Part shown: in pieces, positions 15,702 through 21,410 of the stretch
Position numbering within the stretch: position 1 is the stretch's first letter
How the letters are laid out: each line of letters begins with the position of its first letter
Virus record (IMG/VR): IMGVR_UViG_3300010397_000096
Span: 1-21,410 of that record
From: a virus
Length of the DNA stretch: 21,410 bases
Direction: 5' to 3' (one strand)
Notes under the pieces: generated by a model
Databases searched by the model: none
The model's input: the letters and a program-made list of their open reading frames with translations, nothing else
Told to the model about the DNA's origin: nothing
Program-made: the position numbers and the translations under genes

Positions 15702-16460
15702 TTATTTTTTCTCCCACCCTTTTAAAACAAAATCAATACACTTAAATATTTCATACACTACCTGTGGCTGTATCGCATTGCCAAGTCCCTTCAATCTGTT
15801 TGTGTCCATCCTTTCGGATAGCCCATCAATGCTTCTGCGAATTGCGGGTTCAATTTGCCACTCGCCATTATTTTCCTGCCTGCTTCTCCAAACATTCGAT
15901 ATAATTTCTTCTTGTTTCCGCTCCCGCCTCCCATTGCTGTAACTCCGCCCGTTGTAGTAACGCTCATTGTAGGCAACAATCCAAACTCTATCTCTTCTGT
16001 GTGCTGCACCAATGGCACAAGCTGGAATAATAAATGTTTCGATTTCGTAACCTTCGCTTTCCAAGTCAGCGAACACATCTTCGAGAGCCATTCCGATGAT
16101 GCCAGCAACATTTTCGCCAACAACAAAGGGCGGTTTTGTTTCGCATATAACTCTAAACATTTCTTTCCAGAGGTAACGGTCATCATCTTTGCCTTTCCTG
16201 CTTCCAGCCAAACTAAACGGTTGGCATGGAAATCCTCCTGTGAGAATGTCAATTTTGTTTGTGTATTCGCTTCCGTTAAATTCTTTAATGTCGCCATATC
16301 GCTTTACTGTTGGAAAATTCTTTGTCAATACTTTTTTGCACCATCCATCTTTTTCTACCTGAAATACATTCTCCCATCCCATCCATTCTGCTGCCAAGTC
16401 AAATCCACCGATACCAGTGAACAGCGAAGAATGTTTGATTTTTTCAAAATCATTTGCCAC
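15702..16460 (-). CDS. C5-cytosine DNA methyltransferase
   Basis: A 252-residue enzyme with the ordered C5-methyltransferase motifs: I, SLFTGIGGFDLA (SAM binding, residues 12-23); IV, GGFPCQPFSLAG with catalytic C79; VI, GENVAG (115-120); VIII, AAHRRDRVWIV (152-162); and X, LKGLGNAIQPQVVYEI (223-238). The target-recognition stretch between VIII and X is only about 60 residues, giving a small solitary enzyme. No cognate restriction enzyme is adjacent, so protection of phage DNA from host restriction is the likely role. It sits inside a 22-bp inverted repeat and contains a long second-frame ORF. The start ATG at 16460 leaves a complete motif I. Confidence 0.9.
   Translation of the reverse strand: MANDFEKIKHSSLFTGIGGFDLAAEWMGWENVFQVEKDGWCKKVLTKNFPTVKRYGDIKEFNGSEYTNKIDILTGGFPCQPFSLAGSRKGKDDDRYLWKEMFRVICETKPPFVVGENVAGIIGMALEDVFADLESEGYEIETFIIPACAIGAAHRRDRVWIVAYNERYYNGRSYSNGRRERKQEEIISNVWRSRQENNGEWQIEPAIRRSIDGLSERMDTNRLKGLGNAIQPQVVYEIFKCIDFVLKGWEKK
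15791..16297 (-). other. 168-codon ORF nested in +1 frame of the methyltransferase
   Basis: A full ATG-to-TGA frame inside the methyltransferase gene, with a stop just before its start (TAA at 16304-16306). Its product has segments I recognise from database proteins that accompany phage C5-methyltransferases: MTVTSGKKCLEL, LTWKAKVTKSKHLLFQLVPL, EFGLLPTMSV and LNPQFAEALMGYPKGWT. These lie exactly opposite methyltransferase motifs (for example LLFQLVPL over IIPACAIG). The resemblance could therefore be only a frame shadow of a conserved gene, or true dual coding. No ribosome site is evident. Confidence 0.35.
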
Positions 16461-17371: not shown

Positions 17372-17541
17372 AGTAACTTATTTATTTCTGTTTTTTTTTC
17401 TTCAAGGCTCAACGCGTTAAATCTTTCTCTTTCTTCATCAAAATGTTTTTTATATTCCGTCATATGTTCCCTAAAAAACCATTTAAAATGATCGCAATCA
17501 ATTACCGCTTGTTGCCGTTTTATTTTTTGTTCAATATACAT
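17344..17541 (-). CDS. small helical hypothetical protein
   Basis: A 65-residue charged protein, almost all helix (HMTEYKKHFDEERERFNALS, EINKLLCQLEQLKK), probably a short coiled coil. It begins 11 nt inside the helicase gene's end and overlaps the next gene by 28 nt, so it belongs to the replication operon. The function is unknown. Confidence 0.5.
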   Translation of the reverse strand: MYIEQKIKRQQAVIDCDHFKWFFREHMTEYKKHFDEERERFNALSLEEKKTEINKLLCQLEQLKK

Positions 17542-18826
17542 TTCCGAACTTAGCTTGTGATGCGGTAAATTTCATTTTGCACCATCCTAGTTTACCATTG
17601 CGATGCTTAGACACAATCAACCAGCCAATGCCTTCGGTAGAGTGTCCTGTTTCATCCTCCATTATTCCATAATATTCTGGACGATACAAGAACCCAACTA
17701 TATCAGCATCCTGTTCAATAGCTCCAGACTCTCGTAGGTCGCTTAACATTGGCACCTTATCGCCTCCACGTGTTTCAACAGCCCTGCTCAACTGAGACAA
17801 CGCAATAATTGGTATATTTAACTCTTTCGCTATTTGTTTTATACCACGGCTTATTTCGCTTATTTCAGCCTCTCTGTTTTGTTTACCTTCACCACCTGAC
17901 ATTAGCTGTAAATAATCAATAATTATTATTTCAACGCCAAGCTGATTAACCATTATCCTGGCCTTTTGCCTGAATTGCGATAATTTCAATCCCGCTGTAT
18001 CATCAAAGAAAATGTTTGCGCCTATTATTTTTTTCATGTGCGCTCGTGCTGATTCAAGCTGATAAACATTAAGCCCGTTAAATATTTCATCACTTGGTAT
18101 TTCAGACTCACCGCTTACTATTCTGACAAATAACTGAGCACTTGATACCTCAAGGGTAAATACACCAACTTTATGTTTTAAATCTACTGCCATATTCCTG
18201 GCAATACTCACAACAAAAGCAGTCTTACCCATTCCCGGCCTGGCAGCAATTACCAGTAAATCTGGTTTTTTAATTCCGTTGAATATCCCATCAATTGTTT
18301 TTAAACCAGTTAGTATTCCGCTCACTCCGTTATTAGCCATTATGGCTTCCTGGTCCTTCACGAAATCAGCTTCTAACTCAGCAAGTGTTTTTATGTTGTT
18401 TCCAGACATGCCAGCCGTAATGCCGTTTATATTGCGTTCTGCTGCGTCCAACGCATCAAATATGTCTTTACCCTCCTCAACCATTTGAATAGTTTCTGAG
18501 CAAACCCTGATAGCTTCACGCTTAAGAAATAACTCATGCAGAAATAACAGGTCTTTGTTTAAACCAATCGGAGGTTCACATCTGAAATCAATTTTTTCAA
18601 TTACTGAAGTTGAAAAAGGAGTTATTGTATTCGTTAGCCATGTTTTAACGGTTTCGGAATTTATTGGGTGTTTTGATAAATGCAATGATTTTACGGCCTG
18701 CGCATATGGCTTATATTCCTGAAAATGATTAGGATTAAAACCATTCTCAAGCTCATACAAACACGATGGCTCATAAAAAACTTTTGCCAAAGCAGTTAAT
18801 TCTATTTCGGGGGCCGATAAGATCAT
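17531..18826 (-). CDS. dnaB: DnaB-type replicative helicase
   Basis: A 431-residue helicase. Residues 1-130 form a divergent N-terminal domain. The RecA-like motor starts near GILTGLKTIDGIFNG (residue 170). Walker A is AARPGMGKTA (K201, T202), Walker B is IIIIDYLQLM (D304), IIALSQLSR carries Q345, LRESGAIEQDADIV follows, and R409 in SKHRNGKLG fits the arginine finger. It unwinds DNA at the phage fork as a hexamer. The start overlaps the preceding DUF6291-like gene by 4 nt, the familiar organiser/loader-helicase pair of phages. Length is near normal for DnaB. Confidence 0.95.
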   Translation of the reverse strand: MILSAPEIELTALAKVFYEPSCLYELENGFNPNHFQEYKPYAQAVKSLHLSKHPINSETVKTWLTNTITPFSTSVIEKIDFRCEPPIGLNKDLLFLHELFLKREAIRVCSETIQMVEEGKDIFDALDAAERNINGITAGMSGNNIKTLAELEADFVKDQEAIMANNGVSGILTGLKTIDGIFNGIKKPDLLVIAARPGMGKTAFVVSIARNMAVDLKHKVGVFTLEVSSAQLFVRIVSGESEIPSDEIFNGLNVYQLESARAHMKKIIGANIFFDDTAGLKLSQFRQKARIMVNQLGVEIIIIDYLQLMSGGEGKQNREAEISEISRGIKQIAKELNIPIIALSQLSRAVETRGGDKVPMLSDLRESGAIEQDADIVGFLYRPEYYGIMEDETGHSTEGIGWLIVSKHRNGKLGWCKMKFTASQAKFGNVY

Positions 18827-19443
18827 GCTTGAATAATATTTGCGTTTGCAGGAACTTTAAAAGCCGTTGGTTTTTCCTCTGGTTTATAATTTCTAACAAA
18901 GTCTTTTTCTCTTGCGGCCCAAGTCTCAAGTCTTCTACCGGTATCCCATGTTTTTTGAAGTTCTTGTTTAAACTTTGAACCAGATTTATTTGGCTCAGTC
19001 CAATAGTTAAAAAAATCATTAATCAACTTTGGAGGATATTTTTCATAAAAAGGTTTGAGGGTGTCAGCAAACAAAAGTTTGCGCCTCTCTATATTTATTA
19101 CATTAACATTTACATTAACAGCTACGTTTGCTTGGTTTTGCTTGGTTTTGCTTGGTTTTGCTAGCAATTGCTTGGTTTGATTGTAAGCCTTTGATTTACC
19201 TCCATTTCTACCAGCTTCAACACGCGCTATTTTAATCTTTTCATACCTGTTTAAGTCCCTTTTTAACTGCTGTTTTATGGGCTCAAAAACAAGCGCAACC
19301 ACATCATCTGATGCAACAGGATCGAGGTCGTTAACATATGCTAGCAAATGCTTGATTAGCTTGCCAGCCTTTTCATCGGACAATAAATTGACTGTATGAA
19401 TTAGCTCGGTATATAAAACAAATGATTTCTTATCGGTAGCCAT
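18823..19443 (-). CDS. replication organiser / helicase-loader-like (DUF6291-like)
   Basis: A 206-residue protein translated just before DnaB and overlapping it by 4 nt. Residues 5-75 fit DUF6291: KKSFVLYTELIHTVNLLSDE, LIKHLLAYVNDLDP, FEPIKQQLKRDLNRYEKI, then AGRNGGK. Residues 87-118 are a low-complexity linker (KQLLAKPSKTKQNQ, VAVNVNVNV). Residues about 128-180 (FYEKYPPKLINDFFNYWTEP, ELQKTWDTGRRLETWAA) resemble the DnaT-like C-terminal segment of phage replication proteins. The likely role is origin recognition and helicase loading. The linker DNA is itself a direct-repeat array (19098-19179), as in lambda gene O. Confidence 0.7.
   Translation of the reverse strand: MATDKKSFVLYTELIHTVNLLSDEKAGKLIKHLLAYVNDLDPVASDDVVALVFEPIKQQLKRDLNRYEKIKIARVEAGRNGGKSKAYNQTKQLLAKPSKTKQNQANVAVNVNVNVINIERRKLLFADTLKPFYEKYPPKLINDFFNYWTEPNKSGSKFKQELQKTWDTGRRLETWAAREKDFVRNYKPEEKPTAFKVPANANIIQA
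19098..19179. other. candidate phage replication origin inside the organiser gene
   Basis: Three exact tandem copies of GCTTGGTTTT (19130-19159) in a 10-bp register, flanked by degenerate copies at 19121-19129, 19160-19169 and 19170-19179. Next to them lies an AT-rich stretch with a 12-bp tandem repeat, TTACATTAACAT (19098-19109) and TTACATTAACAG (19110-19121). The 20-mer at 19160-19179 recurs with 17 of 20 matches at 19340-19359. Iterons beside an AT-rich unwinding stretch, inside an initiator-type gene, is the layout of lambda-like origins. Confidence 0.45.
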
Positions 19444-19447
19444 TTTA

Positions 19448-19675
19448 CTATGAAGCTTGTTTTAAATTATGTGTGCTGGAGAATTCAATGAACTCCCTGG
19501 CTGATTTAGCCCTTTCAATTAGCAGTTGTATTTCTTTACTTATGTCCCTGCCCTTACCTAATATACCATCTGCTTTTAATTGATCACAGCATGCTCCTAT
19601 ATGGTTCATCAACCAGGTACATTTATCAACCTCGCGTTGGGCTGCTTCAATTATTATTTCAGGTATTTTATTCAT
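19448..19675 (-). CDS. small helical hypothetical protein
   Basis: A 75-residue protein, mostly helical (IIIEAAQREVDKCTWLMNHI, ISKEIQLLIERAKSAREFIE). It lies 4 nt before the DUF6291-like gene and overlaps the preceding gene by 8 nt. It has three cysteines but no metal-site pattern. The function is unknown; the position suggests a replication accessory. Confidence 0.5.
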   Translation of the reverse strand: MNKIPEIIIEAAQREVDKCTWLMNHIGACCDQLKADGILGKGRDISKEIQLLIERAKSAREFIEFSSTHNLKQAS

Positions 19676-20045
19676 TGCTTAAGCCTTTCTTAAAGTGCTT
19701 TATTATTTTCTCCATTTGAAATTGGTAGTATAGGTTAGGATCATCGTATCCCTCAGGGTCCTGCTTCCATAACAGGTACATGACGGCTTTTAATCGCTTT
19801 GATGGTGTTTTTTGAATGTCCACCATATCAATACCAGCCAGATCAATTTCCTTCATTAAATCAGTCTGTATAGCGTTAGGGCTTATATATACGTTAGCAA
19901 TGTTATTGTTTACCGCAAATAACCTTGCAGCAAATTCAGGAGTTAATTCCTGCGTGCCGAGCGTTACAGAGAGTGTACGATCCTTACGGGTACGTACACC
20001 CTCTATAATTGCCTGCATTACTATGCCTTTTTCTTTTTGTGGCAT
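19668..20045 (-). CDS. conserved Bacteroidota phage protein, unknown function
   Basis: A 125-residue protein. The first half has IIEGVRTRKDRTLSVTLGTQ and ELTPEFAARLFAVNN. The second half has TPSKRLKAVMYLLWKQDPEG, YDDPNLYYQFQMEKIIKHFK. I recall this last segment ('TPSxRLRxVLYLLWxQxxEG...YYxxxMExII') from other Bacteroidota phages near replication genes. The role is unknown; a replication or recombination accessory is plausible by location. The start shares one base with the stop of the preceding gene. Confidence 0.6.
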   Translation of the reverse strand: MPQKEKGIVMQAIIEGVRTRKDRTLSVTLGTQELTPEFAARLFAVNNNIANVYISPNAIQTDLMKEIDLAGIDMVDIQKTPSKRLKAVMYLLWKQDPEGYDDPNLYYQFQMEKIIKHFKKGLSNE

Positions 20046-20281
20046 TAGTCCCTTGACTTTGCGTACATCTTTGCAAAAGGATTATAAACCACCTGACATG
20101 TGATTAAGCAGTCCTCTTCAATTTGAAGGGTTGTATGGTTCTTTGTTTCCAAAGTTGCCGATCCCTTTACCATAAATGTCTCGTTAACATTGTCCAGGTT
20201 AATTACTTGTTTAGCGCCTTTAATGAAATGACCTTCGGTTGAAGATGGCGCTACATTTACTCTTTGTTTTGTTGTTTCCAT
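20045..20281 (-). CDS. small hypothetical protein
   Basis: A 78-residue protein with a polar N-terminus and beta-prone middle (KQVINLDNVNETFMVKGSAT, TLQIEEDCLITCQVVYNPFA). No domain is recognised. It is linked by a one-base overlap to the next gene and lies 25 nt after the DUF6745-like gene. Confidence 0.5.
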   Translation of the reverse strand: METTKQRVNVAPSSTEGHFIKGAKQVINLDNVNETFMVKGSATLETKNHTTLQIEEDCLITCQVVYNPFAKMYAKSRD

Positions 20282-20306: not shown

Positions 20307-21410
20307 TTAAAATTCGTATTTGATTAATTTGAAATATGACTCACCATCAATACCTGATACATCCTCAATTTCATATTTAGACATTGATGACAATACATCA
20401 TTACCTTTTTCTGTCAGTATTGTACTGTATCTTTCGCCTTGGCGAGAAATTGATTTTATATGTTTTTTTAACTTGGATGGTATCCGATATAAAGAAGCAA
20501 TTGCGTCTTTTGCGTTCGTATGTGAACTGTCTACACCCAAGAAAAACATTCTATCTGTAGAAGGGCAATAACAGCGAACATAAGCTATATTGGTTTCGTT
20601 TATATTTCCTTTGAACAAAGTATAAACACCGATGTTCATTCCGTTTGTTGTTCCGGTTAAATACCTTTGATCCTTTTTATCAACGAATGAATCTGTTTCT
20701 TTTAGATATTCACGAAAGAAATCAACTAAATATTCATCACCATATTTTTCCTGCATTAAAGCAATACATGTTGATTTATATTCCTCGTTTGACTCATTAA
20801 TAAAATCTTCCATTTTGAATGATTTATCCGAAATTGATTTAAAGTGTTTCTCAGGAATATTACGGCCATTTATATAAAATCCATTCCATTCTGTTATGTT
20901 GGTTGAATTACCCCATTCAACGGACGAACCGTTTATATTATGTAAGTCATTATTTTCGTTTCTGTGAATTTTTTTAGGGTATTTTGAAACGACACAAACA
21001 AGCTCAGAGAAAATTGCTGTGTAAATATTTCCATTAAGATATAATTCATTCCATGAATCAAGCGTAGCATTTATTTCAGCAGTAAGATTAAATTCATCTT
21101 TCATGAATTTCCACCAAGCAATTACGCCACCATAAAAACAATCTGTTATAAATAGACCATAACTATTCATTTTGCCAAGTGAGTCAAGCTGTGAGTAAAG
21201 CTGTGAGTAAAGCTGTGAGTAAAGCTGTGAGTAAAGCTGTGAGTCAAGCTGTGAGTAAAGCCGTGAGTCAAGCTGTGAGTCAAGCTGTGAGTCAAGCTGT
21301 GATCTAAGCTGTGAGTCAAGCTGTGAGTCAAGCTGTGATCTAAGCTGTGAGGAAAGCTGTGAGTAAAGCTGTGAGTCAAGCTGTGAGTAAAGCTGTGAGT
21401 AAAGCTGTGA
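20307..21410 (-). CDS. DUF6745-like protein with N-terminal SQLX repeats, 5'-truncated
   Basis: An ATG at 21170 gives a 287-residue product, but the frame stays open upstream through the whole repeat to the window edge, adding S-L-G-K and 19 tetrapeptides (SQLY, SQLD, SQLR, SQLS). The repeat contains no ATG, so the true start lies beyond 21410. The C-terminal part carries SVEWGNSTNITEWNGFYING, IPEKHFKSISDKSFKMEDFI, ALMQEKYGDEYLVDFF and DRMFFLGVDSSHTNAKDAIA, which I match to DUF6745 from memory. That domain has no known function. The SQLX stretch could form a repeat solenoid or a flexible stalk. Translation could also begin internally at 21170. Confidence 0.6.
   Translation of the reverse strand, partial: SQLYSQLYSQLDSQLYSQLSSQLRSQLDSQLDSQLRSQLDSQLDSQLDSRLYSQLDSQLYSQLYSQLYSQLYSQLDSLGKMNSYGLFITDCFYGGVIAWWKFMKDEFNLTAEINATLDSWNELYLNGNIYTAIFSELVCVVSKYPKKIHRNENNDLHNINGSSVEWGNSTNITEWNGFYINGRNIPEKHFKSISDKSFKMEDFINESNEEYKSTCIALMQEKYGDEYLVDFFREYLKETDSFVDKKDQRYLTGTTNGMNIGVYTLFKGNINETNIAYVRCYCPSTDRMFFLGVDSSHTNAKDAIASLYRIPSKLKKHIKSISRQGERYSTILTEKGNDVLSSMSKYEIEDVSGIDGESYFKLIKYEF
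21180..21410 (-). repeat. 12-bp tandem repeat, 19 units, coding SQLX
   Basis: Nineteen consecutive 12-nt units (21183-21410). On the minus strand each reads TCA CAG CTT plus a variable codon. The variable codon is TAC (8 units), GAC (8), AGA (2) or TCC (1). The only other change is CGG for CAG in one unit (21255-21266). The array continues past the window edge. All three minus frames are open, so the THS-type peptide from another frame is a shadow. Confidence 0.9.

What the first reader, a model, noticed from the sequence alone, without database searches (positions are those of the whole stretch)
21180..21410. Tandem coding repeat in which almost all variation is confined to one codon
Nineteen 12-nt units encode S-Q-L-X. 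The nine bases for S-Q-L are identical in all but one unit, with no synonymous changes, while the fourth codon takes four values (TAC, GAC, AGA, TCC). TAC-GAC is a one-base change but AGA and TCC need several. Random decay would scatter changes over all 12 positions, so either selection, gene conversion or a targeted process acts on the X position. This could be a diversifying surface or recognition repeat.
Basis: seen in the sequence. Interest (0 to 1): 0.75.

Follow-up and report, generated by a model that had tools for sequence, protein, structure and literature searches.

The report
Diversified four-residue repeat in phage protein
The repeat is real and belongs to a widespread but unstudied phage and bacterial protein family (DUF6745-like), in which a 12-base unit is copied tens of times, three residues stay identical with almost no silent changes, and the fourth is kept diverse, apparently by selection rather than by a targeted mutation device.

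Summary
In detail: 19 in-frame 12-nt units (SQL-X), minus strand, 21183-21410. One correction: TAC to TCC is a single-base change. The array runs off the contig end, so its length is a minimum. It is part of a DUF6745-like gene with homologues in many environmental phages.

Across 81 non-redundant homologous arrays (1964 units) I counted 310 replacement variants at X, 9 silent variants at X and 36 silent variants at S, Q and L. The S, Q, L and X third-base codons are uniform within an array but differ between phages, so arrays are homogenised (concerted evolution) while the protein motif is conserved. Variants present once per array are at most a few-fold commoner at X; variants present two or more times are about 22-fold commoner. 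This points to selection retaining X diversity, not targeted mutagenesis. Reverse transcriptase occurs in 1 of 16 records, so a diversity-generating retroelement is unlikely.

Bacterial and prophage DUF6745 members follow the same rule with other cores (xDQV, xAQV, xGAV). A conserved small His-rich partner gene lies next door. The gene sits by replication genes, so "surface" is not supported. Function is unknown; an intracellular binding array is my best guess. Tweety gp54 (2007) is a published, non-homologous precedent.

The parts
21183..21410 (-). Tetrapeptide array, 19 complete units S-Q-L-X (X = Y8, D8, R2, S1), cut by the contig end
20307..21410 (-). Open frame of the array gene (367 aa visible, 5' end missing); DUF6745-like
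   Evidence: full-length homologues have an extra N-terminal region of about 80-110 aa before the array
20310..21182 (-). C-terminal part after the array; weak DUF6745 match over 20727-21002 (19.9 bits, below the 27-bit cut-off), strong in homologues
20045..20281 (-). Partner gene, 78 aa, directly downstream; shortened relative of the His-rich partner family found beside DUF6745 genes
17531..20045 (-). Following gene block: two unknown proteins, DUF6291 protein, DnaB-like replicative helicase; gives the replication-region context

Best explanation
The array is a tandem-repeat binding segment inserted between the N-terminal and C-terminal parts of an intracellular DUF6745-like phage protein. 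SHOWN (by sequence statistics): units multiply and are homogenised, most simply by block duplication or unequal recombination, so all units of an array share one codon for S, Q, L and one third base for X, while different phages fix different codons for the same S-Q-L. SHOWN: the X residue is diverse within a small polar set (D, Y, R, G, then N, S, H, W, C), with new variants entering X at a rate not far from that at other positions but being retained and spread far more often. INFERRED: this is diversifying selection on a residue that contacts a changing partner (a host protein, a defence component, a competing phage product, or a nucleic acid), with S-Q-L as scaffold and unit number and order as the tuning variables. 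INFERRED: the protein acts inside the cell around replication time, together with the neighbouring His-rich partner protein.
For: Within-array homogeneity and between-phage codon differences: S is AGC, TCA, TCG or another codon; Q is CAG or CAA; L is one of six codons. Relatives with about 76% identical C-termini differ in the S codon of every unit: L003 TCA against L004 AGC, a change that single silent steps cannot make. X: 310 replacement against 9 silent variant types; silent depletion at X gives binomial P about 4e-8 to 2e-23 depending on transition bias, a rough model. 431 of 436 GGN/CGN units share the array's third base. Multi-copy against single-copy variants: X1+X2 221:18, S/Q/L 45:39, Fisher P 6e-14. 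Longest repeated blocks exceed 95% of shuffles in 23 of 81 arrays. Identical neighbours are fewer than in shuffles (446 against 489, sd 17), the opposite of single-unit slippage. The same rule holds in bacterial and prophage members with other cores, e.g. L191: 57 units, X = GAC/CGC/AAC/GGC/TAC, GCG x57, GTG x57. Conserved partner gene. Replication-gene neighbours: DnaB in the window, RepA-like in prophiGD102-1, DNA polymerase region in Ma-LMM01.
Against: No function or ligand is shown. AlphaFold gives the array pLDDT of only about 30-45, so neither a folded solenoid nor a binding face is supported. Many X variants could be inherited rather than new, so the counts are not independent events. 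X sites are nearer saturation: per free slot, single-copy variants are up to about 7-fold commoner at X1 than at S/Q/L (own arithmetic), so some mutational excess at X1 is not excluded. The window's own array shows no excess of repeated blocks (3 against 3.4). The neighbour deficit is only about 2.5 sd. Arrays in short-read contigs may be mis-assembled.
Confidence: 0.6

Rival explanations
1. Neutral tandem repeat: slippage and unequal recombination alone shuffle a few unit types in an unstructured linker; X is merely tolerant while S-Q-L is constrained.
For: Array length and order vary freely; AlphaFold predicts no confident structure there; array-less DUF6745 proteins exist, e.g. Ma-LMM01 gp174 and most actinomycete members seen.
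Against: Neutral tolerance at X would also let silent X3 changes appear (9 against 310), and homogenisation should remove X diversity as well; instead mean X entropy is 2.0 bits against 0.1-0.4 for S/Q/L codons. The X residue set is narrow (T, K, E, Q, P, F, L nearly absent) and recurs in distant members.
Confidence: 0.2
2. Targeted diversification of X1/X2 (a diversity-generating retroelement or another site-directed mutator).
For: X1 and X2 vary while X3 is fixed, as for AAY codons of retroelement templates (recalled, not tested). One of 16 contigs (that of L006) carries a reverse transcriptase.
Against: No reverse transcriptase in the window contig or 14 other array-bearing contigs (some may be fragments); no second exact copy of the core in the window outside the array; adenines in TCA and CAG are not mutated; single-copy variants are not strongly concentrated at X.
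Confidence: 0.07
3. The array is conserved as DNA (iterons, recombination or packaging sites) and coding is incidental.
For: Tandem 12-mers resemble iterons by period, and the gene lies near replication genes.
Against: The DNA differs between phages (AGC/TCA/TCG, CAG/CAA, CTC/CTT/TTG) while S-Q-L is kept; other frames and the reverse strand carry stops in many arrays.
Confidence: 0.03
4. Assembly artefact.
For: The window and many relatives end inside the array.
Against: More than two dozen arrays are flanked by unique sequence on both sides, and arrays occur in bacterial genome records and in a deposited prophage genome. Exact length and order in short-read contigs remain uncertain.
Confidence: 0.02

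Closest known systems
DUF6745 (Pfam PF20530), including prophiGD102-1 gp38 (M. abscessus prophage) and Ma-LMM01 gp174
   Same: Homologous C-terminal part (24 of 27 homologues match PF20530, best 1.4e-51); same partner gene; gp38 has 45 units of [GRW][DG]QL with fixed third bases
   Different: The window protein itself scores below the Pfam cut-off (19.9 against 27 bits); Ma-LMM01 gp174 and most actinomycete members seen lack an array. No paper in the library names DUF6745
Mycobacteriophage Tweety gp54 / Che8 gp57 / PMC gp51 (PMC2884959)
   Same: 12-bp unit, tetrapeptide array, invariant core and third bases, variation at first and second codon positions; the authors inferred selection for variation
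   Different: Different protein family (phrog_3416), core AA-x-x, no DUF6745 match; partner not examined
Bordetella phage BMP-1 bbp36 VR2 (as described in PMC2884959)
   Same: Tandem coding repeat of variable number in a non-essential phage gene
   Different: 24-bp unit; not compared by sequence here
High-internal-conservation WD40 repeats of fungal HNWD receptors (PMC12222747)
   Same: Concerted evolution with a few hypervariable codons under diversifying selection
   Different: WD40 propeller repeats of a fungal immune receptor; no homology
FliH/YscL GxxxG glycine repeats (PMC2674601)
   Same: Long four-residue repeat with variable positions and variable length
   Different: Constant residue is Gly/Ala and three positions vary; no homology

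Membership tests
DUF6745 (PF20530) | Match of the window protein to the Pfam model above the gathering score | tested here: not met
   19.9 bits, cut-off 27; hence called DUF6745-like
DUF6745 (PF20530) | Homology of the group to DUF6745 | tested here: met
   24 of 27 aligned homologues match at E up to 0.01, best 1.4e-51; the model of homologue L003 matches the Ma-LMM01 DUF6745 protein, Foldseek E 6.4e-12
Tweety gp54 family (phrog_3416) | Sequence match to phrog_3416 | tested here: not met
   No PHROG match for the window protein; Tweety gp54 matches phrog_3416 at 1.2e-142
Diversity-generating retroelement | Reverse transcriptase gene | tested here: not met
   No RVT_1 in G000; 1 of 16 array-bearing contigs positive; contigs may be incomplete
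Diversity-generating retroelement | Template repeat and adenine-specific variation | tested here: not met
   No exact second core copy in the window outside the array; adenines of TCA and CAG stay constant but for one CAG to CGG
Fungal HNWD receptors | WD40 and NTPase domains | tested here: not met
   Only DUF6745 found in Pfam
FliH/YscL glycine repeats | Gly or Ala at every fourth residue | tested here: not met
   Constant residues are S, Q, L
Pentapeptide-repeat proteins | Five-residue period | tested here: not met
   Period 12 nt = 4 residues
PADLOC anti-phage defence families | Match to a defence model | tested here: inconclusive
   No match for L079, L089 or the partner; only weak matches inside the array of L003

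The most novel reading that the evidence does not exclude
The array is a modular recognition rod in which each four-residue unit presents one read-out residue (Y, D, R, G, N, H, W), so that unit order encodes specificity for a polymeric or repetitive ligand (nucleic acid, peptide or host assembly), and phages re-target it by duplicating, deleting and re-diversifying units.
Probability: 0.12. Interest if true: 0.9.

Novelty: new variant of a known kind. Interest (0 to 1): 0.55.

Why it matters
A common but unstudied gene family in phages and some bacteria keeps one residue per four-residue unit diverse while erasing silent variation across the rest of the array. This is a strong natural signal of diversifying selection, and the pair of array gene and His-rich partner gives a concrete system for finding what it recognises. 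It also explains why many phage contigs break at this gene.

Tried and rejected
Literature: no paper in the library names DUF6745 or prints SQLYSQL-type or WDQVWDQV strings in this context (two hits were unrelated). Structure: two AlphaFold models, array at pLDDT about 30-45, N- and C-terminal parts good; no PDB fold match and no convincing PDB sequence match for the C-terminal part or the partner; the PDB sequence hit for an array is a PGQM/PGQL low-complexity region. NCBIfam matches to MSCRAMM adhesins and PADLOC matches lie within the array and are taken as low-complexity matches. Plasmid hits to array-like sequences in Lactococcus and Vogesella were unrelated repeats. Two attempts at bacterial genomes failed before A2 worked. 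L112/L152: 99.7% identical over 2.9 kb with a shift of 5 units in the array, first read as a population-level block indel; L152's contig ends in the array, so I do not rely on it. Charge pairing between neighbouring X residues: none. Dual coding in other frames: 20 and 19 of 81 arrays have stops in the two other forward frames, so it is not a general feature. Rfam: nothing in the window. The Ma-LMM01 transcriptome paper (PMC5780444) does not name gp174 or gp175 in its main text.

Full report
Observation. The contig is a single viral record of exactly 21410 bases. On the minus strand its last 228 bases, 21183-21410, are 19 complete in-frame units TCA-CAG-CTT-X. X is TAC in 8 units, GAC in 8, AGA in 2 and TCC in 1; one unit has CGG for CAG; there is no silent change. 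TAC to TCC is one base, so only AGA needs several. The open frame continues without a start through the contig end, so the array is cut.

What the gene is. The 287-residue region after the array matches Pfam DUF6745 weakly (19.9 bits, cut-off 27). A search of viral contigs with the whole open frame gave 68 related loci, and a later search with a different member gave 69, partly the same. Complete homologues have an N-terminal part of about 80-110 residues, the array, and a C-terminal part of about 200-290 residues. Of 27 aligned C-terminal parts, 24 match DUF6745, best 1.4e-51. I therefore call the window protein DUF6745-like.

Per-position variation. In 81 non-redundant arrays, 1964 units, X is D 571, Y 528, R 295, G 232, N 78, S 73, H 70, W 39, with everything else rare. 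The second base of X is a purine in 1888 of 1964 units, which is the hydrophilic half of the code. Counting distinct variants per array, which discounts copying of units, X has 310 replacement and 9 silent variants, while S, Q and L together have 36 silent and 86 replacement variants. Within arrays 1747 of 1769 NRY units share the array's third base, though arrays differ (59 have C, 21 T, 1 G). The consensus S, Q and L codons also differ between arrays. Relatives about 76% identical in the C-terminus, L003 and L004, have TCA and AGC for S in all units of the array proper, which cannot be reached by single silent steps. Arrays are therefore homogenised as units or re-grown from a founder unit, under selection for S-Q-L as protein.

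Selection or targeting. In 73 arrays of adequate length, variant bases present once per array number 11 at X1, 7 at X2, 4 at X3, and 39 over the nine S/Q/L positions. Variant bases present two or more times number 145, 76, 20 and 45. Per site the single-copy class differs about two-fold (9 against 4.3) and the multi-copy class about 22-fold (110 against 5); Fisher P for multi against single is 6e-14. Correcting for slots already occupied, single-copy variants at X1 are up to about 7-fold commoner than at S/Q/L, and many S/Q/L slots are under purifying selection, so a modest mutational excess at X1 is not excluded. The simplest reading is ordinary mutation with selective retention at X. X strings show repeated blocks longer than 95% of shuffles in 23 of 81 arrays and slightly fewer identical neighbours than shuffles, which suggests block duplication rather than single-unit slippage.

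The same rule elsewhere. DUF6745 members in Nocardia farcinica (L070), Methylopila (L079), a Chromatiales MAG (L078), an actinomycete (L191) and M. abscessus prophage prophiGD102-1 (L165) have arrays with other cores. L191 has 57 units with X in GAC, CGC, AAC, GGC, TAC, a second codon GGC or GAC, then GCG 57 times and GTG 57 times. Of these five only L078 shows some looseness. Array-less members exist: Ma-LMM01 gp174 and most of the actinomycete proteins seen. DUF6745 matched 16 of 198 genomes sampled in the class of L074 and 2 of 385 in the class of L079. Some phages carry short free-standing array frames downstream of an array-less gene (L032).

Partner gene. A small protein with invariant Gly, His and Asp residues (GExSGHxH ... 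HxEH ... GxYxV ... VxD; A6) lies beside the array gene in many phages, on either side, and in Nocardia, prophiGD102-1 and Ma-LMM01. It has no Pfam or PDB match. The window's next gene, 20045-20281, belongs to a shorter family (A5) that profile comparison joins to A6 at 91% probability.

Context and mechanism. In the window the gene heads a minus-strand block with a DUF6291 protein and a DnaB-like helicase, away from the plus-strand genes. In prophiGD102-1 a RepA-like gene is close, in Ma-LMM01 DNA polymerase and uracil-DNA glycosylase genes. This argues for an intracellular role and against a tail or surface repeat. That X contacts a changing partner is inference from the selection pattern. 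AlphaFold gives confident N- and C-terminal parts and an unreliable array.

Comparison. Tweety gp54 was described in 2007 with a 12-bp unit, invariant third codon positions and selection inferred (PMC2884959); it is a different family, so the pattern has a precedent and probably arose more than once. The evolutionary analogue is the fungal high-internal-conservation WD40 receptors (PMC12222747). Targeted retroelement diversification is not supported.

Noticed in passing
window 20045-20281 (-); L032:1411-1788; L011:4003-4380; L165:3544-3939; L166:3012-3383: Unannotated small His-rich protein family (GExSGHxH...HxEH...GxYxV...VxD) next to DUF6745 genes in phages and bacteria; no Pfam or PDB match.
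   Followed up: partly
L032:3750-4611; L030:3682-4314: Short free-standing open frames made almost only of SQLX units, starting MKQINSQL or similar, downstream of an array-less DUF6745-like gene; two or three per locus.
   Followed up: partly
L007 and L046 (contig 3300046380_000009); L045 and L144 (3300047163_000066); L145 and L155 (3300049846_001128): Single contigs that begin and end inside the same kind of array, as expected if a circular genome map was broken by the assembler at the repeat.
   Followed up: partly
window 15791-16297 and 15702-16460 (-): Two overlapping open frames in different frames; the longer matches C-5 cytosine methylase, the embedded one ends in NPQFAEALMGYPKGWTQTD, which looks methylase-like from memory but has no Pfam match.
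   Followed up: no
G005:C1:74902-75423 (contig of L006): Reverse transcriptase (RVT_1, E 1.8e-24) in one array-bearing phage contig, about 10 kb from the array gene; not tested for a retroelement.
   Followed up: no
window 19127-19178: Second small tandem repeat (10-nt period, 5 copies) inside the DUF6291 gene.
   Followed up: no
L009:2546-2929: Another 12-nt array (32 units; found as [TPE]VRL, but its true reading frame is undecided) upstream of a DUF6745-like relative, again with constant core codons GTT-CGC.
   Followed up: no
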